From NCBI RefSeq assembly GCF_032813545.1, contig NZ_CP136520.1:1606001-1670000 (forward strand): DNA of 64,000 bases. The letters are read 5' to 3'. The stretch comes from Nodosilinea sp. E11 (GTDB lineage: Bacteria > Cyanobacteriota > Cyanobacteriia > Phormidesmidales > Phormidesmidaceae). The notes beneath the pieces were generated by a model, which saw only the letters and a list, made by a program, of their open reading frames with translations, searched no databases and was not told the DNA's origin. Below, in pieces: positions 15,661 through 43,118 of this stretch. Positions within the stretch are counted from its first letter, which is position 1; every line of letters begins with the position of its first letter. The position numbers were made by a program, and so were the translations under genes.

Positions 15661-16761
15661 CTAAGGTGGCTCTAGTTGAGACTTTTGCTCTAACAGCGCT
15701 TCTACCGCCGCCAAAAGCTGCGACTGGCCCCAGTTTTGGTAAAGTGAGGCCGCGATCGCACAGCCTCCCGCCCCCACCCCCTCTTTGACAAACCCCCGCT
15801 CGTAGGCCCGCAGCGCTTCAAACCGCGACGTCTCAAAGCTCAGCTGGGTAGCCAGCAGACAGGCCCCGGTTAGCTCCGCCAGCCCCACCGTATCGCCAGT
15901 GGCATCTTCCGCCACCCAGCGAGTCGTACCCACCACCACGTTTTGCGGGTTCCAGGCGTAGTTTTCGGCTTTGGCGATCGCCTTCATCAGCGCATACACT
16001 GCCAGCATTTGTGTGCCCCCCGCCAGCAGCACAGGCCGGGTGCGGCTAGCCGCCAAAGCCATCCCTGCTACCACGGGCTGCATTGGGTCGCCCACCGCCG
16101 CCGCCACCGCTAAGGGATGGGGCCGATCTGACAACTCAGCACGGGACAACCCCTGGGTGACTAAGGTCTGCTTTTGATCGTGGTTACAGGTGGGATGGCT
16201 GCTATTCACTCGCGCCGCCGCATCTAGCCCTAGCCCTGTCAGCAGGCCCAGGGCCGTCGTGGTGCCGCCCACCACGCATTCCGCCAGCAGTATATAGTCG
16301 CTTTGAGCACCCAACAACTTCCCCTGGGCTAACCCTTGTCGCCAGAGGTGATGCACCACATCTAACGGTAAAGCCGCTCCAGTGCTCAGGCACTGAGCAG
16401 GCTTACCCCCCAGATCTACCCAGGGGACTGTCGGCGACTGAGGCAACCCGGCATTCAGAACGACAAGCGGAATCCTCTGCCCTGCAATAACAGCTTTGGA
16501 AATTAGCGCCGGAGACGCCCCCGCCTGAAGCGGCGGTAGCGGATACTTTGGGCCTGGCGCGAGGCCATTGACCATAAACTCGGCATCGGCTAGGGCAGTG
16601 TAGCGGCGATCGCGCGGTGTCGCCCCCGCCGCCGAAATTCCCTCGATCAGCCCCGTCTCCGTAAACCCCAGCGTCAGCACCATCGCTGGCCGCAGACCCT
16701 GCCCTTGTTCTAGCCAAGCTTGGCCTTGCTGAAGCCGGGTGTAGATTTTAATTGGAGACAT
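15661..16761 (-). CDS. CobT-like nicotinate-nucleotide phosphoribosyltransferase family protein (TIGR00303 type)
   Basis: About 366 residues from the ATG giving MSPIKIYT. The protein has the features of the archaeal/cyanobacterial CobT-like family: VLTLGFTETGLIEGISAAGATP near the start, DYILLAECVVGGTTTALGLLTGLG in the middle, PVLLAGGTQMLAVYAL, and the late VKEGVGAGGCAIAA loop, where CobT enzymes hold a Glu. The proposed role is activation of the lower ligand base for cobalamin or pseudocobalamin. No other cobalamin genes are beside it. A shared promoter with upstream genes is unlikely. Confidence 0.85.
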   Translation of the reverse strand: MSPIKIYTRLQQGQAWLEQGQGLRPAMVLTLGFTETGLIEGISAAGATPRDRRYTALADAEFMVNGLAPGPKYPLPPLQAGASPALISKAVIAGQRIPLVVLNAGLPQSPTVPWVDLGGKPAQCLSTGAALPLDVVHHLWRQGLAQGKLLGAQSDYILLAECVVGGTTTALGLLTGLGLDAAARVNSSHPTCNHDQKQTLVTQGLSRAELSDRPHPLAVAAAVGDPMQPVVAGMALAASRTRPVLLAGGTQMLAVYALMKAIAKAENYAWNPQNVVVGTTRWVAEDATGDTVGLAELTGACLLATQLSFETSRFEALRAYERGFVKEGVGAGGCAIAASLYQNWGQSQLLAAVEALLEQKSQLEPP

Positions 16762-16890
16762 ACTGAGCAAAAGGCTGAAGCATAGAGCTGATAGGGGCGT
16801 AACTGGGGCCTGGTCAGGTTAAATACTGATTTGATAACTTTATTGATCGGTGGGCAGTGCCTACGCCTACCCATCTACCCATCCACCCAT

Positions 16891-17676
16891 CTACTCCTTC
16901 AGCAAATCTTGCACCCACCCCGGTGGCGCTGGAATTTTGGTGCCCAAACGACTCAACAGCAGCCAGGCCGCCAGATGCACCGTAAACAGGTACACAATAT
17001 TGCTGGCCAGCACCGACAGCAGTGCCAGCAGCTGCACTGCCTCTACATTGGCCTGTCCCAGCACCCCCACATCTAAAATGCCTAATCCCACCAGGCGCTC
17101 AAGCCCCCAGTTCAGCATTTGGGTCACCTGGGTGGTCAAATACACCCATAGATCTTCGCCCACCAGCACTGACGACAGCCACAGCCGAAAGAAAAACCCC
17201 ACTGTGCCCAGTAGCGACCCAACGGCGATCGACCAGTACCAATTTGACCGTCTCACCCAAAAAAAGCCCAGCTGCACCCCCAACAGGGCGTAGGGCATGA
17301 GAAACAGCAGACTGCGGGGCGGCCCCATCAGCACCGACAACAACAGCCCCGACACCAGCGCCGACATCCAGGCGGCCCGTGGCCCCCAACGCAGGTAGAC
17401 CAAGGCCATAGGCAGCGGAAACAGCAAACGCAAAATTGGCCCTGGCGGGAAATAAGTATTCACCAACCAAATTAGCGCCGCCGTGCTGGCTAAAAAGGCC
17501 GTCTCGACCATCGCCAGGGGGCCAACCTTAAGGCGGTGGGATAGATCGGGTTCGTCAGCCTCAGCCTCTGGATCACGGTAGTCCAAGTAGGTTTCTAGCT
17601 CGTCGAAGTCGCTCGCGGTGGTCTCGACAGGGGGCACAAATTTGGCCCCAGAGGCCGGGTCAGGGGGGTGACTCAT
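16891..17676 (-). CDS. DUF2232 multi-pass membrane protein
   Basis: 261 residues. An acidic cytoplasmic N-terminus of about 60 residues (DELETYLDYRDPEAEADEPD) is followed by about seven membrane helices, beginning VETAFLASTAALIWLVNTYF and including RLLFPLPMALVYLRWG, which is typical of the DUF2232/YybS-like family. The function is unknown; relatives are sometimes compared with ECF transporter S components. It starts six bases after the end of the CRP/FNR gene on the same strand, so the two are almost certainly cotranscribed. CCCA-type simple repeats lie just beyond its stop. Confidence 0.83.
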   Translation of the reverse strand: MSHPPDPASGAKFVPPVETTASDFDELETYLDYRDPEAEADEPDLSHRLKVGPLAMVETAFLASTAALIWLVNTYFPPGPILRLLFPLPMALVYLRWGPRAAWMSALVSGLLLSVLMGPPRSLLFLMPYALLGVQLGFFWVRRSNWYWSIAVGSLLGTVGFFFRLWLSSVLVGEDLWVYLTTQVTQMLNWGLERLVGLGILDVGVLGQANVEAVQLLALLSVLASNIVYLFTVHLAAWLLLSRLGTKIPAPPGWVQDLLKE

Positions 17677-17682
17677 GAATAG

Positions 17683-18387
17683 CTAAACCAGCAGACGTTC
17701 TAGGGCGTTGATGTCAGGAATACTCATCATGTCTCTTTCCCGCACGATCAACCCTTTCTTTTCTAGCTTACTCAGTACGCGGGTCACCGTCTCACGGGCC
17801 AGCCCACTAAGGCTGCTCAGCTCTCGATGGGGCAGGTTCGGAATTTCGATACCACCGGCTCCCGCTTGCCCTTGCCCATCGGCCAAAAAAAGAATGATAT
17901 CGGCCACCCGCGAGGTGCTGTCAGACTCCCGCAGCCGCAGCCGCCGATTCACCTGGCGGAGCCGCCGCGCCATCAGCTGAGAGAGGCGAATACCCGCTAA
18001 AGGCTGGGTATTGAGCAGTTTGACAAAGTCGCTGGCGGGCATGCTACCAATCACCGTAGGCACCAGGGTAATCACGTCGGTGGAGCGAGGCACCTCTTCT
18101 AGGGGGGCCATTTCGCCAAATAGCTCACCTTTACCCAAAATATTCAGGGTGACTTCTTTGCCGTCAAGATTATAGGTACGAATCTTAACCCAGCCATCCA
18201 AAATAAAATAGACTGAAGACCCCCAGTCGTTTTCCAGCAAAATCACCTGATTTGCCGGATGACGGCGAGTGACAACGTGGCTGGTGGCTTCAGCTACAGC
18301 CTCTTCTGGCAGGTCGCGGAATATCAGAGCCGAACGAATTAATTTGAGATCGGCATCAGAGTCGCGAGGGTTGTAGCGAGCATCCAT
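17683..18387 (-). CDS. CRP/FNR family transcriptional regulator
   Basis: 234 residues from ATG 18387, chosen because GGGGGAA lies just upstream; an ATG five codons earlier has no such site. The N-terminal cyclic-nucleotide-binding fold contains GELFGEMAPLEEVPRSTDV: the Glu of FGE and the following Arg-Ser correspond to residues that bind cAMP in CRP, so ligand binding is plausible. The C-terminal winged helix has HRELSSLSGLARETVTRVLSKLEKKGLI. No cysteine cluster for an Fe-S centre is present, which argues against an oxygen-sensing FNR. It is divergent from the giant ATPase gene. Confidence 0.88.
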   Translation of the reverse strand: MDARYNPRDSDADLKLIRSALIFRDLPEEAVAEATSHVVTRRHPANQVILLENDWGSSVYFILDGWVKIRTYNLDGKEVTLNILGKGELFGEMAPLEEVPRSTDVITLVPTVIGSMPASDFVKLLNTQPLAGIRLSQLMARRLRQVNRRLRLRESDSTSRVADIILFLADGQGQAGAGGIEIPNLPHRELSSLSGLARETVTRVLSKLEKKGLIVRERDMMSIPDINALERLLV

Positions 18388-18783
18388 CAATTCCCCCAAC
18401 ATTAATTTTTTTGTTTAAGTTAGTGATATTAAAACGACCCAACCAATCCTATCCCAGGGCAGGGGTAGAATGCTTGACTGGTGGATAAACGGTAGAATTC
18501 AAAGCCCTAGAACTATATCATTCCCCCAACTACAGACCGGTGACTATAAATAGGGTGCGATCGCAAGCCCAATGTCTACGCAAATCGCCCCCAGCATAGC
18601 CCTACCGCCTGTCGCTTTAGTGAAACAAACGGGGGATGCTTAGGTAAAGGGCAGTGCCGCTAGACTGATCTAGCCTGATCGAGTTGATAGCTTGATTTTA
18701 ATGATTTGGCTTTGATGATTTTTAAAGCCGCCTGACATACACTTTGGCAATCGCTGGGGTACAAGGTAAGCAAAGGGGTAACC
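18388..18783. promoter_or_regulatory. Divergent control region
   Basis: 396 bases between the CRP/FNR gene and the giant gene. It holds both promoters, but I cannot name convincing -35/-10 pairs. The right end carries AAAGGGGTAACC, a good ribosome site for the GTG start at 18784. No repeat of the window's families is seen here. Confidence 0.4.
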
Positions 18784-21700
18784 GTGCAGCAGGATGAATT
18801 GGAAGCTCTGGTAGCCGAAATCGATTCAATTCTGGGGGAAGCCGCGCCCCGGCTACCCTGGGTGATGTCGAATGATGCCAATCAGCGGCAGCTGTTGGCT
18901 CGGGCTCGGGCTTGTCTAGCGTCAGTTAAGGCGGCTTCAGAGGCCGAGCCACAGGCCCTGGGCCCGAGCGGTTTGCCCAACGACCCCACTGCGGCGGCAT
19001 CAAGCCAGGTGCTCAAAGCGCTGCTGCAAGAAATGCAGTACCTGCGCGGTCAGACCATGCAAATTCTCGATCCGCTGCGCAACGAGGTGACCACCCTCAG
19101 GCAGCAGCGAGAGCTATTGCTGCAAGAGGTGCAACAGCTGCAACAGCAGCGGTTACAGGTTGACCAGGGGGCCACGCTTCACCAACTCCCCCCCAGTTGG
19201 GAAGCCGCCCTGCAGCAGATGGCTCACCAGATTGAAGCCAACCTCAGTGCCCAGGTCAGCCAGTCGGTGCAGCGGCTAGAGTCGGCCACGGCCAACGCCT
19301 ACGGTTTGAGCCAGGGAGCGCAAGGATTTGCCGAGGGCGATGCTCCAGGGCTAACGCCAGCCCAGCGGCTAGAGTTTCTCAAACAGCTTCAGGCCCAGGC
19401 CGACCAGGTCATGCTGGGGCTAGACCAATCGCTGCGATCGGTGTTCGACACCCTCCACCAGAGTATCTATAGCTATCAAGACTCGCTTAACCAGGGGCTA
19501 AACCAAATGCACTCCCTGGGACAACAGGGTGAGCTGATGTTTAGTGCCCTGGTCAATCATCTGGGCCAGCAGATTACCCCCGATACCCTGGCCTATTTAG
19601 AGTCGGGCCAGCGCCGCGAATTACCCCAGCCCCGACTAGAAACCGCTGCCCCCGAGACCCGAGGCGAGCAAAACTTCGCGGCGGAAGGCAGTGGTAACTT
19701 GTCGCTAGACCTAGAGGATGATCTAGCCCTAGATGCCCTCGACTTTGACCTCGATCTAGATGTTGACGACATTACCCTGCTGCAAATCGAGGACGAAATT
19801 ACCGAGCTTCAGCTAGATGACAATCTAGACGATGCGATCGCGGCTGAAGCCGATGCTGATTCTCGCCTAGACCTGCAACTGCTGAATAGTCTAGATGTCG
19901 CTGACCCCGACCCGTCGCCGGCGGTGTCACTGCCCGATGGGGTAGAGAGCGATCTCACCGCCGAAGTGACGGCGGGGGAAGAGGCAGACTCAGGCCTAGA
20001 CGAGCTCTATGAAAGTTTGTTTGGCAACGGTGGGAGCTTGGGTGACCTCACTGAGATGCCCCTAGACCCTGAAGCCGGGGAGACGGATACGATAGATGAT
20101 TTCTTAGGAGCTGACCTGGAGACCGATTTTGAGATCAACCTAGAGACTGGTCTGGTGGGTGAGGGAGCGCTTGATGATATTGACGCAGCGATCGCAGACG
20201 ACCCTACGGAACAGATCACCCTCACCGATGAGTTGCCCCGCCCCGAAGACTTGGCCCAGCTGACTTTGGCCGCTGAGATGGCCGAGGCCGACCCCAGCGC
20301 CGACGTCACCAACAGCAGTCTAGATGGGCTGTTTGGAGCAGGCACCGCCGCCCAGATCGAAACCAGCCTGGGTAGCCCGCTCGGGGTCGATATTCCCGAG
20401 GTAATTACTTCGTTTGACGACCTGTTGCCCGCAGGCCCTGGCGAAAACGGCGATCGCGAAGCGGCATCGGATGATGACGATATGTTTGGCGAGTTTATCG
20501 CCGCCTCTCCCGAAGAAGATCTGCTGGCCCAAGACGATCTCACCGCCACCGCCTCCTATGACCTGGTGGTAGATGACGCCATGGTCGATCAGCTGCAGCA
20601 AGACCTGGAGAACCTAGAGACCGAAACGGCGATCGCCTCTGAGAGCCGTCCCTGGGCCGATGGCGGTCTAGATCGCTTCTCTGCCCCCGAGCTTTACTCC
20701 AGTGAGACCACCCCCGACTTGGCCGCAACGGAGGCCACCGAAGCCGCCTTTAACTTACCTCCAGACCTGTTTCAATCGCAGCCCACTGCCCCAGCCCCGG
20801 CTGAGCCTGTAGATTGGTTTGGTGCAGAAGCCCCCTCTGCAGAGACCTCTGACCCCAATCCAGGGGTAGACCTATTTGGCCCCATACCCTCTCTACCAGA
20901 CGATGCGGCGCTCAGTTTGACTGAGCCTAATGACCCACCGCCCACCGCCGATCAGTCGGGTCTCGACCTGTTTAGCGATCCGACCCCCGAGTTGGGTGAG
21001 CCTACCCTCGATCTATCCCCCGACCTGTCGGCGATTGACCTGTTTAGTGATCCAGTACCCGCTGAAGGGTTCGCCGACAGTTCTGATCAGTCTGAAGCTG
21101 AACCAGCCCTCGATCTACCCTCTGACCTAGCCGCGATCGACCTCTTTGACAGCCCTGCGGCCACCGATACCCCGCCAGAGTCAGCCTTAGACTCAGACTT
21201 AGACTCAGAGTCGCCAGAGTTTGACCTGTTTGACGAGTTGCACTCCCCAGCCCCCGCCGATGGCGATCGCCTTGAGACAGCCCCCAGCCCTACCAGCGAC
21301 GCCTTTGGTCTCGATCTATTCGGTGAAGCCCCCCTAGAAGCTAGGGAGGAGCCGCTTGCCCCAGACCAAGTTGAGGCTGACCAGCCTGGGCTAGATTTGT
21401 TTGGAGGGTTAGCCCAGGCTGCCGAGTTTAGCGCTACTGAAGGCGATCGCGTTGAAGAACCCAGCGCAGCACCGATCGAGGCCCTCGACTCCGATGCCCC
21501 AGATTTCGAGGCCCCCAAGGCCCTTGGGTTAGATCTGTTTGGGGAGCCAGCGCCGGCCTTAGCCCTAGAGGACCTGCTGGCAGATCTCGACTTGAGCCTA
21601 GAGCCAGAATCCCCCGCCCTGGGTGAATCGGGCATGACCCTAGACGACCTCACGGATCTATCGGCTGAGGCTGCACCGGCTGACAATCTGCCCCCAGACT

Positions 21701-24700
21701 CGGCCCCCACGGTGTCTGCCCCATCTCTAACCCTAGAAAACCTGCTGGGAGACGATCTCACCCTTGAGCCGTTACCCCCAGAACCCCAACCCGAAGCCAC
21801 CCTAGACGACTTAGCTGCCGATGTCAGCTTTGCACAAACCAGCCCTGGGCAACCAGCGCCGCTGTCAGACGCTGATCCCTCCCGAGACGGTACCCTTGCG
21901 GATCTTGACTGGGGTAGTCTATCGGCGTTTAGCCCCCTAGAGTCTGCACGCCAGCCCGACCTCTTCCCCGAAACCGGGCCAGAAGGTGAACTGTGGGATG
22001 CCGGTCCTGACTCTGAATTTCCGACCCTAGACGAAGATCCCTTTGCCGACCTGTCGTCCGCTGAGGAGTTGCCTTCGCCAGATACGACTCCAGAGGCGTT
22101 GGCTTCCGAACCGCTTACCCTAGATGAACTCTCCCTAGGGCAAGACGCCTATCTCAATGGCCCAACCCCAGACGATCTGTTTCCCGAACAGCCCCCCGCC
22201 TTAGATCGCCTCACCTTAGATGAGCTGTCCTGGGAATCTGCCCCCCCAGTTTCGCCATCATCGTTAGGCGACAGCAGCTCGCCTCTGGCCGACCCCACAG
22301 TAGAGACGTGGAACCTAGATTCCCTTGAGCTAGACCCCCTTTCTCCGGCCCCCCAGGCAGACAGGTTCTCCTTTAATTTAGATGATTTGAACCTGAGCCT
22401 AGAGGGCGATGATGCCGAAGAGGAGAGCCCGGCTGACACGACATCCCCAGCAGCTAGCCTTGAGGATCTAGCCGCCCTTGGAGCCGACTGGGCAATAGAG
22501 GCCCCTAGCCAACCCGATACGCCCCCTCAGCCACCCACTGGGGAAACCGATTGGCAGCGAGAACTCAGCCTCGACACTATTCTCGACGCCGCTGGGGCCA
22601 GCCCCATGGCAGAGCCTAACGCGCCCCCAACCACGGCTGACGATGCGATGCAGACGGCGGCAACCCCAGCGGAGCAGCCGATGGAGGCCATGATCGATTT
22701 GATCAATCTCGATCCGGCGTTGGAAGAGCCGCTGCCGCCTGAGCCCAGTCTGGCTTTAGATCTGGACTTGAGCCTAGAACCTGAGAGCCTAGCACTCGAC
22801 AACTTCCCTGAGCCCGCTGCTTCAGGGCCTGACGAGCCGTTGGCTGGATCTGCTTTAGACTGGTTAGACCTGGGGGCTGAAGTGGGCGATCGCACCCCTT
22901 CCCCAGAAGCCGCACCCATCCTCGATCTCGACTTCGACCTGAGGCTTGAACCAGAAACCGATACGATCGATCGCTCTGGGGCTACAGACAGCCCCGACGC
23001 CTTGGCCCTCGACTTTGACACAGCGCCATCGCCCGATCGGTCTGCCACTCTAGAGCCTGCCCCTGGGAATGCCAGTGAAACCGACACCGTAATTGACTGG
23101 CTGCCTGCCGAGCCCCAAAACCTGTTTGAGGGTGATCTGTCTCTGAGTGCTATCCCTCAAGAGCCAGAGCCAGGACCAGAGCCAAATAACTCGATTGCTG
23201 ACTTGGCTGCACTAGAGGCCCTAGGTTTAGAGGTCACTAGCTTAGAGGTCACTAGCTTAGAGAACGCTAGCTTAGAGAATGACGATGACCTAGAGTCTCT
23301 CTTAGCAGACTTTCCCACCACGGAGACTGCGCCTGCCGTCAGCGATCATCTTGAGCTTGAGCGGTCTATGGACATCACCGCCGATGCTCCTGTACCGCCG
23401 CTGTTTGATCTAGACGATGATCTAGAGGTCCCAGAGCCATCCCAGCCCGCAAGTTCCGAGGCGACAGCAACCGATCTGTTTGAAACGTCTCCCTCAACGA
23501 CTCCCAGCGATGTCGCTCCCCCAGTGCTAGATCCCCCTGGGGTAGACCCGTTTGCTCTAGAGTCTCTAGAGGCGATCGCCCCGACCCCAGACCCGACTAC
23601 CGCAACAGATCCAGCCAATCGCGTCGAGGCTGAGACCCCGGCAGCAATTCCCCCCGCCGCCGCTGCATCTGCGGCGGCACCCACACCGCTGTGGTTTTTA
23701 GGTTTAGACGTAGGCACCACTGGCCTATCAGCGGTACTGCTAGAGCGACGCGGCGGCAATGTGTATCCGCTCTACTGGATCGACAATGCCATCTCTGGCG
23801 TGACCGCCGATAAATTCTTCCGTCTACCTACTTTGGCCTCTGTGGGTCGTGACGATGAGGCCGGTAACCTAGGCGTTCGGTCGGTGGGGTCGTCGGCGCT
23901 AACGGTGAACTGGAGCGATACCGAAGACCCTGCCGATCAGAGCACAGTGCTGATCAAGGCTCTCAAGCCTTACCTCAAGGTGGGCATTCCCACCGGGGGG
24001 GCCGACGAGGGCTCTGCCCAACCGCAGATTCAGTGGTCTGACCGCGATCAGTTGCCCTTGCAGGTGTTTCAAGACAGCTTGCAGAGGCTGCTAGCCACAC
24101 TACCCCAGGGTCTTGCTCCCGCCGCCGCCTTTACCGTTGGAGCCGTAGGTCTCGACAATGCCGCTATTTCTCTAGCCTTTGAGCAACTACTGGGGGTGAT
24201 TGTCAGCTACCCAGCCAACTGGCCCGACACCTACACCTTTAATCTGCGGGAAGCCGTGCTGGGGGCCAAGATCATTGCTAACCCCGACGATGTTTACTTT
24301 GTTGAGGATGCGATCGCAGCTGTGCTCTCTGGTCTACCCGACCCTGGTGCGCCCCTCCCCGAGGTCAGCAGTCAGCCCATGCAGCAGCAGACCCTCTATG
24401 CCTGCGCCTGGACAGGCGGCACCGTCGTCCTATCTGCCGGGGCTACGGTGACCGAAGTGGGCATGGTCAACCTGCCGCGATCGCTGAGCGACCTCACCTA
24501 CAACGACTTTGCCCTGCAATCCATGAGCTATGCAGGCGACGCCATTGATCTAGACATTGTTTGCCACCTGCTGCACCCCGCCGAACGTCGCCAAAGCCGC
24601 ACCAGTGAAGGCTATGGCCGCAGCAGCACCACCGATGGCTGGGGCTGGCAGGCCGCTATGCCCGAACTCGACGGCACCCATTGGGCTGATCTAGACCTCG

Positions 24701-25560
24701 ATAGCTGCGACTTTCCCCGCCCGGCAGAGCCCGATATTGCCCGCCGTCAACGCCTCTACCAGCGTTTAGAAAGTTCTCTGCTGGGCCAAAGCGTGCTCGA
24801 AGCCGCCCGCCATCTGAAGATCATTCTGCAGCACCAGCCCCAGTTTGAGCTAGAGCTAGCCGACCAGCGCTGGGTGGTGCGCAGCAAAGACCTCGAAGAC
24901 CGGATCATTCTGCCCTACATTCAGCGCATCAACGGTCACCTCAACCGGTTGCTGAGCGAGGCCAACCTCAACAGCCAGGGCATCAACCAGGTGATCTGCA
25001 CAGGCGGCAGCGCCTCCCTGCCCAAGATCGCCCGCTGGCTGCGGCAGAAGTTCCCTAACGCTACCATCGTGCAGGATACGTACCACAGCGATCGCCCCCC
25101 AAGTTGTAGCCGGGTCGCCTACGGCCTAGTCAACCTGGTGCGCTATCCCCAGGTGCTCGATCTTACCCGCCACCAGTACAGCGACATGTTCTTGCTGATG
25201 GAGGTGCTGCGCACCCTGCCCGAGCAGCCCATGCCCCTCAACGGCATTTTGCACCTGCTCAAAGAACGGGGGCTGAATGTCGATGCCTGCCAGGCCCATC
25301 TGATGGCTCTGCTCGAAGGTCGCCTACCCCCCGGTCTGCTGCCTAGCAGTACCAGCACCCCCCTGGTGCTGGCCCCCACCAGCGAAGCGCTAGCTGCCCT
25401 GGCTACAACTCCACTGTTTAAGCGCCCCAACGGCCAGGTGTATGTGCCTGACCTAGAGCAGGGCCAGCGGCTGCAAGCCTTTATGGAGATGCTGCTGGCC
25501 GATAAACGTCAAACCCTGGGCGACCCCCTGCTCAGCCAGCTAATGGCACTGAATGTGTAG
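18784..25560 (+). CDS. Giant protein: coiled coil, acidic D-L-F-rich disordered region and Hsp70/actin-like ATPase domain
   Basis: 2258 residues from GTG 18784, which follows AAAGGGG. Residues 1-60 form a helical start ([21 protein letters not shown]), about 78-130 a coiled coil ([19 protein letters not shown]), and to about 280 further helices. From about 300 to 1635 the sequence is acidic, rich in D, E, L, P, S and T, almost without lysine, and repeats short motifs: about a dozen D-L-F cores ([21 protein letters not shown]) and many LDDL/LDELSL units. Residues 1640-2258 are an Hsp70/FtsA-like ATPase: [18 protein letters not shown] (phosphate 1), a degenerate phosphate 2 (AWTGGT, 1875-1880) and [17 protein letters not shown] (adenosine, 2070). 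It may be a multivalent scaffold whose assembly is ATP-dependent; this is inference. The partner is unknown, and the gene stands alone opposite a CRP/FNR regulator. Confidence 0.85.
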
Positions 25561-25653: not shown

Positions 25654-26385
25654 ATGGTGATGACTGCGCAACAGCTGGCCGACCTGATGCCAGATGCGAC
25701 CCAGTTGGAGAGTAATGAACCAGAAATGGAAAGCTCGCTACATTACGCCCAGCTAGCGCTGCTGGTGGCCTGCTTAGACTGGCTGTGGCGAGAGCGAACA
25801 GATTTCTTCATTGGCGCTAATCTGACTATCTATTCCAGCCGCGAACAGCTCAAGAAGCGCGATTTTAGAGGCCCCGACTTCTTCATAGTCAATCAAACCC
25901 AGCGCCATCTTAGATGGACTAAATATGTACGCAATGTCGGGTTAACCGACTGCTTCCTCAAAAATCACATCCAGCGCCGCCACCGAAAATCGTGGGTGGT
26001 GTGGGAAGAAGATGGGCGGTACCCCGATCTGATTATCGAGCTGCTGTCTCCGGCTACGGCAAAAACAGATCGCACCCTCAAAAAGGTGCTCTATCAAGAT
26101 TGCTTTAGAACCCCAGAGTATTTTTGGTTTTCGCCAGAGACCCTGGAGTTTGAAGGGTACCGATTGGTGGGGCAGCACTATGATGCGATCGCGCCTAACG
26201 CCTCAGGCCACCGCTGGAGTGAGGTGCTGGGCCTATTTTTAGGCGTTCAAGACAATACCCTGCGCTACTTTCACCCCTCGGGTGAGCCGGTGCCCACCCC
26301 CGAAGAGGCAGCAGCAGCGGCCCAAGCCCGAGCCGATCGCCTAGCCGAGCAGCTAAAAGCCCTAGGGGTAGAGCCAAAAGCCTAA
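25654..26385 (+). CDS. Uma2 family protein (DUF820, restriction-endonuclease-like fold)
   Basis: 243 residues. It has the PD-(D/E)XK-like blocks of Uma2 proteins: GPDFFIVN (Asp of the active site) and WVVWEEDGRYPDLIIELLSPATAKTD, containing the E-x-L-S-P-x-T motif, then KKVLYQDCFRTPEYFWFSPE. A C-terminal helix rich in Ala/Glu (PTPEEAAAAAQARADRLAEQL) is usual in cyanobacterial members. Such genes occur in many copies in cyanobacterial genomes, and their role is unproven. ATG 25654 or a third-codon ATG could be the start. A repeat hairpin follows directly. Confidence 0.9.
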   Translation: MVMTAQQLADLMPDATQLESNEPEMESSLHYAQLALLVACLDWLWRERTDFFIGANLTIYSSREQLKKRDFRGPDFFIVNQTQRHLRWTKYVRNVGLTDCFLKNHIQRRHRKSWVVWEEDGRYPDLIIELLSPATAKTDRTLKKVLYQDCFRTPEYFWFSPETLEFEGYRLVGQHYDAIAPNASGHRWSEVLGLFLGVQDNTLRYFHPSGEPVPTPEEAAAAAQARADRLAEQLKALGVEPKA

Positions 26386-27150: not shown

Positions 27151-27614
27151 GCGAGGAAGACAGAACGCGAAAACCCTAGCTAACCGCAGCTGAGGTGCAA
27201 ACTGGGAGAGCTAGGGTACGATCGACCTTAGCCCTGCAATCTGCGCAAGAGATTTGCCGGGTTAGCTGTTCGTAGGTGTTGGAAGCGCCTACGGACAGCG
27301 CCAAAGTTTTCGAGTTCTGCATGGTCACCGCTCGGATTGAACGGCTTAATGTAAGAGAATACTGGTACAACCGCTCCCCGTCAACCGTGGAGATGGAAGA
27401 TAGCACGATGCTATTTATCCTTATAAAAGCTATTATGCAAATTATCTACTAATCAGGAAGAGTCAGGATGCGAATAATCTGCCTATCTACTCAATTAAAG
27501 GAATCAGATAGTTAGAGTTATTCAATAAATTAATAGACGGATAAGCGGAAGCTTAAGATTGAACAATCCTGAAATTCAGGGCTTAATTATTTTCTTAGTA
27601 TTTTTTTGCGTTTT

Positions 27615-28895
27615 ATGAAAATCAAGATTAATGGGATAACGAGCCTCGCTGATTCCAATAGATTTTTGCGAGCTCTCTGGGCTGAATTACGAAAACAATT
27701 CGGGAAATTCGCCTGGAATTATCAACCATCCAAAGATGGAACTTCACAAACCATTTTTCTTGGCTGGGGAAATGGGATACCCATCTCTTTATTATATAGC
27801 CAGAAATCCATAGTAAACGGTGTCCTATTTGGGAATGGTTCTAGTGAGCCTGTAGATGAAGCAAGTGAGTTAGGCTTAAAACTAAAGCAAAGCGTTGTTG
27901 CAGCACTTCAGCATCGAAATATTCCTAAAACGGAGATTCTAGAGGTGCCAATTTCATCTCTTTATAGTTCACTTGCTCCCTATAAAGGTGAGTGGCTTGA
28001 AATTTTGCCTGGACAACGGCCTATCTCCTTGCTAACTGTTAGAGTAAAAGCTTTTGACGAGACGGATGCGAAAACAGAACTCTTTCGCATTTCTTCGTTT
28101 ATTTTGGACGTGCTTAGCATAGAAACAAATAACATGTTTTGGATTGACAGCCAAAAACAGGACAAAGTTTACGAATTAAAGTTAGGAACGGAAGAAGCAG
28201 TCTGCCCAGAAGTAAATACTTCTCCCAATGATGAAGAATGGATTGACACATATCCATCTCACAACGGATATATGCTTATTTCAAATCAGGCCATCCAATT
28301 CCTTGATCGGATTTTGTCAAAAGATGAGCTGAGTAGTACTGAAAGTTTATTTATCCGCTCTTGTCATCACTATCATATGGCAAGGATTCAAGATGCATTA
28401 ATTTACAATCGCTTGTATTCTCCGAACAGTCAGCCCAACGATGAACCACTTGGAATTATTTTGGAAGAAGATCCCCGCTTCAAAGAAGCACCTATATTTG
28501 CTGGACGAGCTAATGAGATTGCTACAGTACTTTATATGTCTGCAATTGAAGTTGTTTCAATGATTGACGCTAATCCTTCCGAGAAGTGTACAAGTTGTGG
28601 TCAAGAACAATATAGAATTTCAGCACGTGTTGCAGAATACGTCAATAAATATGATGAGGGGGGGCATTTATCTAAAGTCTTCAAGTCCCTTTATAGCAAG
28701 AGATCAAAGTATCTTCATGCAGGGGCTTTACTGAGTGATCATGCATATGTTGGGACAACCATACCTAAATTGGATCCCTCGTCAGACTCTGGTATGTCCG
28801 AGATGATCTCTGTTCCTGTCATAAACCTACGAGAATGGACTGGTTATATGCTTCGTCAACAACTTAAATCTTTATTATTAGCTGGTGGGCTATGA
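27615..28895 (+). CDS. HEPN-like (ApeA-type) protein in an A+T-rich island
   Basis: 426 residues from ATG 27615; a TTG three codons earlier is the only alternative. The gene is strikingly A+T-rich beside its neighbours and uses codons the other genes avoid, a sign of recent transfer. The N-terminal half is a beta-rich region of unknown fold (LFRISSFILDVLSIETNNMFW). The C-terminal region resembles Apea-like HEPN domains: AIEVVSMIDANP, a CTSC pair at residues 325-328, ISARVAEYV, and LYSKRSKYLHAG, where R363 and H368 make the R-x4-H ribonuclease motif. This suggests a growth-arrest or antiphage RNase, but no known partner gene is adjacent. Family assignment is by eye. Confidence 0.6.
   Translation: MKIKINGITSLADSNRFLRALWAELRKQFGKFAWNYQPSKDGTSQTIFLGWGNGIPISLLYSQKSIVNGVLFGNGSSEPVDEASELGLKLKQSVVAALQHRNIPKTEILEVPISSLYSSLAPYKGEWLEILPGQRPISLLTVRVKAFDETDAKTELFRISSFILDVLSIETNNMFWIDSQKQDKVYELKLGTEEAVCPEVNTSPNDEEWIDTYPSHNGYMLISNQAIQFLDRILSKDELSSTESLFIRSCHHYHMARIQDALIYNRLYSPNSQPNDEPLGIILEEDPRFKEAPIFAGRANEIATVLYMSAIEVVSMIDANPSEKCTSCGQEQYRISARVAEYVNKYDEGGHLSKVFKSLYSKRSKYLHAGALLSDHAYVGTTIPKLDPSSDSGMSEMISVPVINLREWTGYMLRQQLKSLLLAGGL

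Positions 28896-39464: not shown

Positions 39465-43118
<3,654 letters not shown>

What the first reader, a model, noticed from the sequence alone, without database searches (positions are those of the whole stretch)
18784..25560. Giant protein joining a coiled coil, a 1300-residue acidic disordered region and an Hsp70/actin-like ATPase
The C-terminal ATPase shows phosphate-1 and adenosine motifs of the actin/Hsp70 superfamily, while the middle is long, acidic and full of short repeated motifs. This layout suggests a multivalent scaffold whose assembly is controlled by ATP, for example a polar or condensate-forming organiser. I recall cyanobacterial proteins with a similar N-terminus and ATPase, but not with a described function. 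It stands alone beside a CRP/FNR regulator.
Basis: partly seen in the sequence, partly recalled or inferred. Interest (0 to 1): 0.75.

Follow-up and report, generated by a model that had tools for sequence, protein, structure and literature searches.

The report
Cyanobacterial scaffold-ATPase, ancestrally slippage-split gene
The giant protein is real: a helical coiled coil, a 1,335-residue acidic disordered arm and an Hsp70/actin-fold ATPase domain; in many related cyanobacteria the same gene carries a run of about ten A's exactly between arm and ATPase that probably makes it yield two proteins, with and without the ATPase, a switch this organism's lineage does not have.

Summary
In detail: a 2,258-aa ORF with a helical N-terminus (1-290), an acidic low-complexity arm (291-1625; 24% D/E, one Lys) and a C-terminal domain (1633-2258) predicted confidently (pLDDT 88, pTM 0.91) to have the actin/Hsp70 fold (DnaK Z 22, MreB Z 20). 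It matches no curated family above cut-off. It is a single-copy gene in about half of surveyed Cyanobacteriia genomes (201/390), usually divergent from the same Crp regulator. The larger finding lies in the relatives. Between arm and ATPase they carry an A9-A11 run (69 distinct sites, mostly A10). The ATPase lies in the -1 frame (32), the same frame (28) or the +1 frame (9) of the arm. The run stays while the phase changes at least 13 times on the tree, and a stop codon lies within 10 nt in an alternative frame in 88% of split genes. That is the pattern of programmed transcriptional slippage (as in Thermus dnaX): one gene, two products, scaffold alone and scaffold-ATPase. Other lineages separate or overlap the two genes; the window's clade is fused with no run. 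Scaffold assembly controlled by ATP is plausible but untested; slippage itself is inferred from sequence, not shown in RNA.

The parts
18784..25560 (+). whole gene, 2258 aa, GTG start, single frame
   Evidence: conserved across same-genus genomes
18784..19653 (+). N-terminal helical coiled-coil module (residues 1-290), family-specific, no known relatives
   Evidence: alignment A3 of 42 relatives, AF2 all-helical, no PDB fold match at E<=0.001, no consistent Pfam family
19654..23658 (+). acidic low-complexity arm, residues 291-1625
   Evidence: composition
20005..20025 (+). conserved short motif LYESLFG (residues 408-414); pattern [LI][YF]..LF[GA] in 32 of 73 relatives' arms, 0.14 expected
20503..20526 (+). 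conserved short motif ASPEEDLL (residues 574-581); in 26 of 73 arms, 0 expected
20869..21543 (+). cluster of repeated (L/I)DLF / DLF(G/S/D) motifs (residues 696-920)
23581..23694 (+). arm/ATPase junction; the region that carries an A9-A11 run in relatives; here there is no A run of 6 or more anywhere in the gene
23680..25557 (+). actin/Hsp70-fold (ASKHA) ATPase domain plus helical C-terminal extension (residues 1633-2258)
   Evidence: AF2 pLDDT 88.3, pTM 0.91; DnaK Z 22, MreB Z 20
23698..23724 (+). phosphate-1 motif LGLDVGTTG; Asp 1642 invariant in 48/48
24424..24459 (+). phosphate-2 region [12 protein letters not shown]; the usual first Asp is not conserved (Ser here, Asn/Ser/Asp elsewhere), Thr 1890 kept in 44/48
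24994..25023 (+). adenosine motif [10 protein letters not shown]
17683..18402 (-). divergent Crp/Fnr-family regulator, conserved neighbour (81 of 107 loci)
16891..17676 (-). DUF2232 membrane protein, conserved neighbour (76 of 107)
15661..16770 (-). CobT-family phosphoribosyltransferase (TIGR00303 above cut-off), conserved neighbour (66 of 107)

Best explanation
The gene is the permanently fused form of a Cyanobacteriia two-module gene: a self-associating coiled-coil scaffold with a multivalent acidic arm, and an ASKHA ATPase. In many relatives a single A9-A11 run at the module boundary lets RNA polymerase slip, so that one gene yields both scaffold-only and scaffold-ATPase chains in a set ratio, the logic of Thermus dnaX tau/gamma. 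In the window's clade (family f1) the run is absent and every chain carries the ATPase. Most likely mechanism of the protein: N-terminal helices oligomerise, arm motifs (LYxSLFG, ASPxxxLL, (L/I)DLF) bind partners multivalently, and the nucleotide state of the ATPase controls assembly or partner release. SHOWN: architecture, predicted fold, distribution, the conserved run, three phases, adjacent stops, split/overlapping/fused variants. INFERRED: that slippage occurs, that both products are made, that the N-terminus oligomerises, that ATP is hydrolysed, and what the complex does.
For: Run: 66 distinct sites in the first survey (A10 53, A9 8, A11 5) plus three more A9 split sites. Enrichment: 68 runs of A>=9 in 220 kb of junction versus 13 A/T runs >=9 (one of length 10) in 2.09 Mb elsewhere in the same loci counting both strands, and none in 637 kb of the rest of the same genes. 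Phase: -1 29, 0 28, +1 9 in the first survey; at least 13 phase changes on the ATPase tree among run-bearing genes, so the run rather than the frame is kept. In Nostocales the in-frame codons are GAA AAA AAA AAG; where the run is lost the Lys-Lys-Lys is lost too. Stops: frame ATPase+1 closes within 10 nt of the run in 88% of split genes versus 21-29% at control positions in the same arms. In 6 of 38 split genes no ATG/GTG/TTG lies in the ATPase frame between 60 nt before the run end and the phosphate-1 motif, so a frame change is needed to make the whole domain from standard starts. No downstream hairpin or upstream Shine-Dalgarno enrichment versus control, as expected for transcriptional rather than ribosomal slippage. 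Precedent: T. thermophilus dnaX slippage with nearby stops gives a 1:1 ratio (PMC5009743); A9 and A11 cassettes gave 40% and 63% frameshifting in E. coli (PMC3711429). Modules exist as separate genes (L155, L169, L170, L180, L185, L189) or as ATGA-overlapping genes (L188, L194). Fold.
Against: No RNA or protein data: slippage and two products are inferred. The window itself has no run, so the switch does not operate there. Absence from the window clade may be loss or never having had it (parsimony cannot tell). The first phosphate-2 Asp is not conserved and phosphate-1 is degraded in some lineages (L037, L039), so ATP hydrolysis may be weak or absent in places. N-terminal packing is low-confidence. 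One relative has practically no arm (L193), so the arm is not indispensable for every lineage.
Confidence: 0.6

Rival explanations
1. Ribosomal -1 frameshifting on A_AAA_AAG-type heptamers, rather than RNA polymerase slippage, joins or truncates the modules.
For: Any A10 run contains a usable heptamer; -1 is the commonest split phase (29 of 38); in-frame Nostocales sites read GAA AAA AAA AAG, like E. coli dnaX.
Against: Nine genes need +1 (or -2) to reach the ATPase; no stimulatory hairpin or Shine-Dalgarno-like element above control; run length is held at 9-11, more than a heptamer needs.
Confidence: 0.2
2. The run is a replication-slippage contingency locus (phase variation): individual cells switch the ATPase on or off genetically.
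For: Homopolymers of this length are mutable; L158/L164 (A10, -1) versus L160 (A11, +1) differ by run length.
Against: Most phase differences occur with run length unchanged at A10; phase is uniform within clades such as the f15 genera; stops placed right after the run suggest termination is part of the design. One genome per species is held, so within-species variation could not be tested.
Confidence: 0.12
3. The split genes are sequencing or assembly errors in homopolymers, or decaying pseudogenes, of an ordinary fused protein.
For: A10 runs are error-prone on some platforms; L147 and L163 look broken beyond the run.
Against: The run itself is conserved, in and out of frame, across many families, including single-contig genomes (L028, L033, L035, L122, L149, L150, L158); the ATPase frames are long, stop-free and conserved on both sides; lineages with separate or ATGA-overlapping genes have no run to misread.
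Confidence: 0.04
4. The C-terminal domain is a degenerate, non-hydrolysing ASKHA domain acting as a protein-binding module, and the protein is a passive tether.
For: First phosphate-2 Asp not conserved; phosphate-1 degraded in L037 and L039.
Against: Phosphate-1 Asp invariant in 48/48, Gly of the adenosine motif 48/48, phosphate-2 Thr 44/48.
Confidence: 0.25

Closest known systems
Hsp70 family (DnaK, HscA, Ssz1/Hsp110 nucleotide-binding domains)
   Same: NBD fold, Z 20-22; phosphate-1, connect and adenosine segments recognisable
   Different: No substrate-binding beta-sandwich in the model (helical C-terminal extension instead); all HMM scores below cut-off; joined to coiled coil and acidic arm
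PilM / MreB / FtsA actin-like proteins
   Same: Same fold class (MreB Z 20.2); PilM_2 weakly matches 17 of 48 members
   Different: Below Pfam cut-off; gene is not in a pil cluster; polymerisation unknown
Thermus thermophilus dnaX (programmed transcriptional slippage; PMC5009743, PMC3711429)
   Same: A10 run at a module boundary with nearby stops in other frames, predicted to give long and short products from one gene
   Different: Unrelated protein; here the phase of the DNA itself varies between lineages; the window's own copy has lost or never had the run; not shown experimentally
Magnesium-chelatase fs-genes of Antonov et al. 2013 (PMC3711429)
   Same: Poly-A joined pairs with fused homologues elsewhere; measured 40-63% at A9-A11
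   Different: Different family; that paper's main text does not mention this gene (its supplement could not be read here)
Cyanobacterial DnaK1/DnaJ3 system (PMC9239167)
   Same: Another cyanobacterial Hsp70-fold protein with a specialised role (type IV pilus, polysaccharide)
   Different: A true DnaK; no sequence or neighbourhood link to this gene found

Membership tests
Hsp70 chaperones | actin-type nucleotide-binding domain | tested here: met
Hsp70 chaperones | substrate-binding beta-sandwich and lid | tested here: not met
   model after residue 490 of the domain is helical with one short strand pair
Hsp70 chaperones | score above curated family cut-off | tested here: not met
   PF00012 17.9 bits versus 20.6; TIGR01991 28 versus 709
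PilM (type IV pilus) | PF11104 above cut-off | tested here: not met
   11.4 versus 27 bits for the window; best member E 1.3e-5
PilM (type IV pilus) | pilMNOQ gene cluster | tested here: not met
   conserved neighbours are Crp, DUF2232, CobT
MreB/FtsA cytoskeletal ATPases | filament formation | not testable with these tools
   fold alone is shared
Programmed transcriptional slippage genes (window copy) | homopolymer run of 9 or more at the frame junction | tested here: not met
   no A run of 6 or more in 18784-25560
Programmed transcriptional slippage genes (relatives) | conserved A9-A11 run at the module boundary | tested here: met
Programmed transcriptional slippage genes (relatives) | stop codons close by in alternative frames | tested here: met
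   88% of split genes within 10 nt versus 21-29% control; weaker (46%) for in-frame genes
Programmed transcriptional slippage genes (relatives) | heterogeneous mRNA and two protein products | not testable with these tools
   no RNA or protein data on hand

The most novel reading that the evidence does not exclude
A widespread and old cyanobacterial gene uses programmed transcriptional slippage at a phase-indifferent A10 site to set the ratio of ATPase-free to ATPase-bearing subunits of an unrecognised scaffold; some lineages replaced the switch by gene fission, overlapping start-stop coupling, or, as in the window's clade, complete fusion.
Probability: 0.65. Interest if true: 0.85.

Novelty: new variant of a known kind. 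Interest (0 to 1): 0.72.

Why it matters
It would add an uncharacterised ASKHA family, present in about half of the sampled Cyanobacteriia, and one of the broadest natural cases of programmed slippage in a non-mobile bacterial gene. Because the phase drifts while the run stays, the family is a natural experiment separating polymerase slippage from ribosomal frameshifting. It also means that annotation pipelines probably list many of these genes as two unrelated proteins or as pseudogenes. The variants (slippery, split, overlapping, fused) make the question 'does this complex need scaffold subunits without ATPase?' directly testable.

Tried and rejected
Crp binding palindrome between the divergent genes: 23 of 79 versus 20.3 in shuffles, rejected. 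Lys-Lys-Lys conserved for the protein's sake: rejected, because it is lost where the run is lost and phases encode different residues. Stimulatory RNA hairpin or Shine-Dalgarno element: none above control. Longer arm as compensation for the missing run: arms in the window's family are long (about 400-1,700 aa, mostly over 1,200) but fused genes overall are not longer than run-bearing ones. Relatives of the N-terminal module by fold or Pfam: only chance coiled-coil hits. Literature on function or on slippage of this gene: none found in seven searches of the open-access library. Search beyond the class: all listed matches were in the class; the sample outside it was small, so restriction to Cyanobacteriia is likely but not established.

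Full report
WHAT IS THERE. The ORF at 18784-25560 (+) encodes 2,258 residues from a GTG. It has three parts. Residues 1-290 are predicted all-helical with two very long helices and are conserved in nearly every relative whose locus is complete. Residues 291-1625 are acidic and low in complexity (24% D/E, one Lys, half P/G/S/T/Q/N/A). Residues 1633-2258 form a confidently predicted domain (pLDDT 88.3, pTM 0.91) whose fold matches DnaK (Z about 22, 340-370 residues) and MreB (Z 20). Sequence scores to Hsp70, HscA and PilM are weak and below every curated cut-off, so it is an ASKHA domain outside the named families, not an Hsp70: the model has no substrate-binding sandwich. Phosphate-1 Asp and the adenosine Gly are invariant in 48 sequences; the first phosphate-2 Asp is not.

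DISTRIBUTION AND NEIGHBOURS. The ATPase is found, normally once per genome, in 201 of 390 Cyanobacteriia genomes and 87 of 157 genera at E <= 1e-30. Close named relatives are Nodosilinea and Leptolyngbya, which is where the window belongs. A Crp/Fnr regulator divergent from it (81 of 107 loci), DUF2232 (76) and CobT (66; TIGR00303 confirmed for the window) are conserved neighbours; DUF2232, CobT and what looks like a reduced Crp remnant persist even next to the arm-less 588-residue homologue L193. No Crp site was found between the divergent genes.

THE UNEXPECTED PART. In many relatives the ATPase frame looks 'short' (about 600-830 aa), because the scaffold and the arm lie upstream in another frame. 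The two frames meet at a run of 9-11 A's, 16 to 475 codons before the ATPase domain. I collected 66 distinct sites: A10 in 53, A9 in 8, A11 in 5, and three more A9 split sites in more distant lineages (L182, L186, L191). In 29 of the 66 the ATPase is in the -1 frame, in 9 in the +1 frame, and in 28 in the same frame as the arm. Such runs are otherwise almost absent from the same DNA: 68 in 220 kb of junction against 13 in 2.09 Mb elsewhere (both strands), none in 637 kb of the rest of these genes.

WHY THIS LOOKS LIKE PROGRAMMED SLIPPAGE. On a tree of the ATPase the phase changes at least 13 times among run-bearing genes while the run remains; presence or absence of the run changes at least 12 times (a quick tree with some long branches, so the counts are approximate). 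A site that supplies all frames makes the phase of the DNA nearly neutral. The frame ATPase+1 meets a stop within 10 nt of the run in 88% of split genes, against 21-29% at random positions in the same arms; for in-frame genes the figure is 46%. In six split genes there is no ATG, GTG or TTG from which a whole ATPase domain could start independently. There is no enrichment of hairpins or Shine-Dalgarno elements, which ribosomal frameshifting often uses. The arrangement is that of Thermus dnaX, where slippage on a similar run with nearby stops in other frames gives two products 1:1 (PMC5009743; A10 in related two-ORF dnaX genes, PMC3711429); A9 and A11 cassettes from other genes gave 40% and 63% frameshifting in E. 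coli (PMC3711429). I have no RNA or protein data, so slippage and two products are inferences.

OTHER SOLUTIONS TO THE SAME LAYOUT. In L155, L169, L170, L180, L185 and L189 the two modules are separate adjacent genes; in L188 and L194 they overlap by ATGA, the usual sign of translational coupling; L191 has both an A9 run and an ATGA. The window's family (f1), f23 and f22 are fused with no run. In Nostocales the run is in frame (GAA AAA AAA AAG) and has been lost several times, the lysines with it. So the scaffold and the ATPase form a functional pair (split in some genomes, fused in others), and the fused giant of the window is one end of a series.

HOW IT PROBABLY WORKS. The helical N-terminus most likely self-associates; the arm carries motifs conserved across families ([LI][YF]..LF[GA] in 32 of 73 arms, ASPxxxLL in 26 of 73; about zero in shuffles) and local repeats of (L/I)DLF in the window, so it most likely binds partners at several points; the ATPase most likely controls assembly or release by its nucleotide state. 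In slippage lineages only part of the chains would carry the ATPase. These steps are inference; the cellular role is unknown, and I found no publication on this gene.

VERDICT. Observation confirmed; interpretation partly supported; the family is ordinary in neither domain layout nor expression. The most valuable next experiment is sequencing of cDNA across the run in a run-bearing strain.

Noticed in passing
18403-18783 and homologous intergenic regions: The 8-mer TACACTTT/AAAGTGTA occurs in 27 of 79 intergenic regions between the Crp gene and the giant gene (top shuffled 8-mer: 11), also in the window close to the start; a possible promoter or operator element.
   Followed up: no
L191:9926-9978: The junction carries both an A9 run and an ATGA stop-start overlap, possibly an intermediate between slippage and translational coupling.
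   Followed up: partly
L193:9188-10957 (588-residue open frame): A homologue with helical N-terminus and ATPase but practically no arm, next to DUF2232, CobT and what looks like a truncated Crp gene.
   Followed up: partly
window 39465-43118 (+): 1217-aa protein with many WD40 repeats (beta-propellers), unrelated to the finding.
   Followed up: no
window 25654-26385 (+): Uma2-family putative endonuclease gene directly downstream of the giant gene; a homologue is nearby in only 7 of 107 loci.
   Followed up: no
window 27606-28895 (+): 429-aa ORF with no Pfam or NCBIfam match.
   Followed up: no
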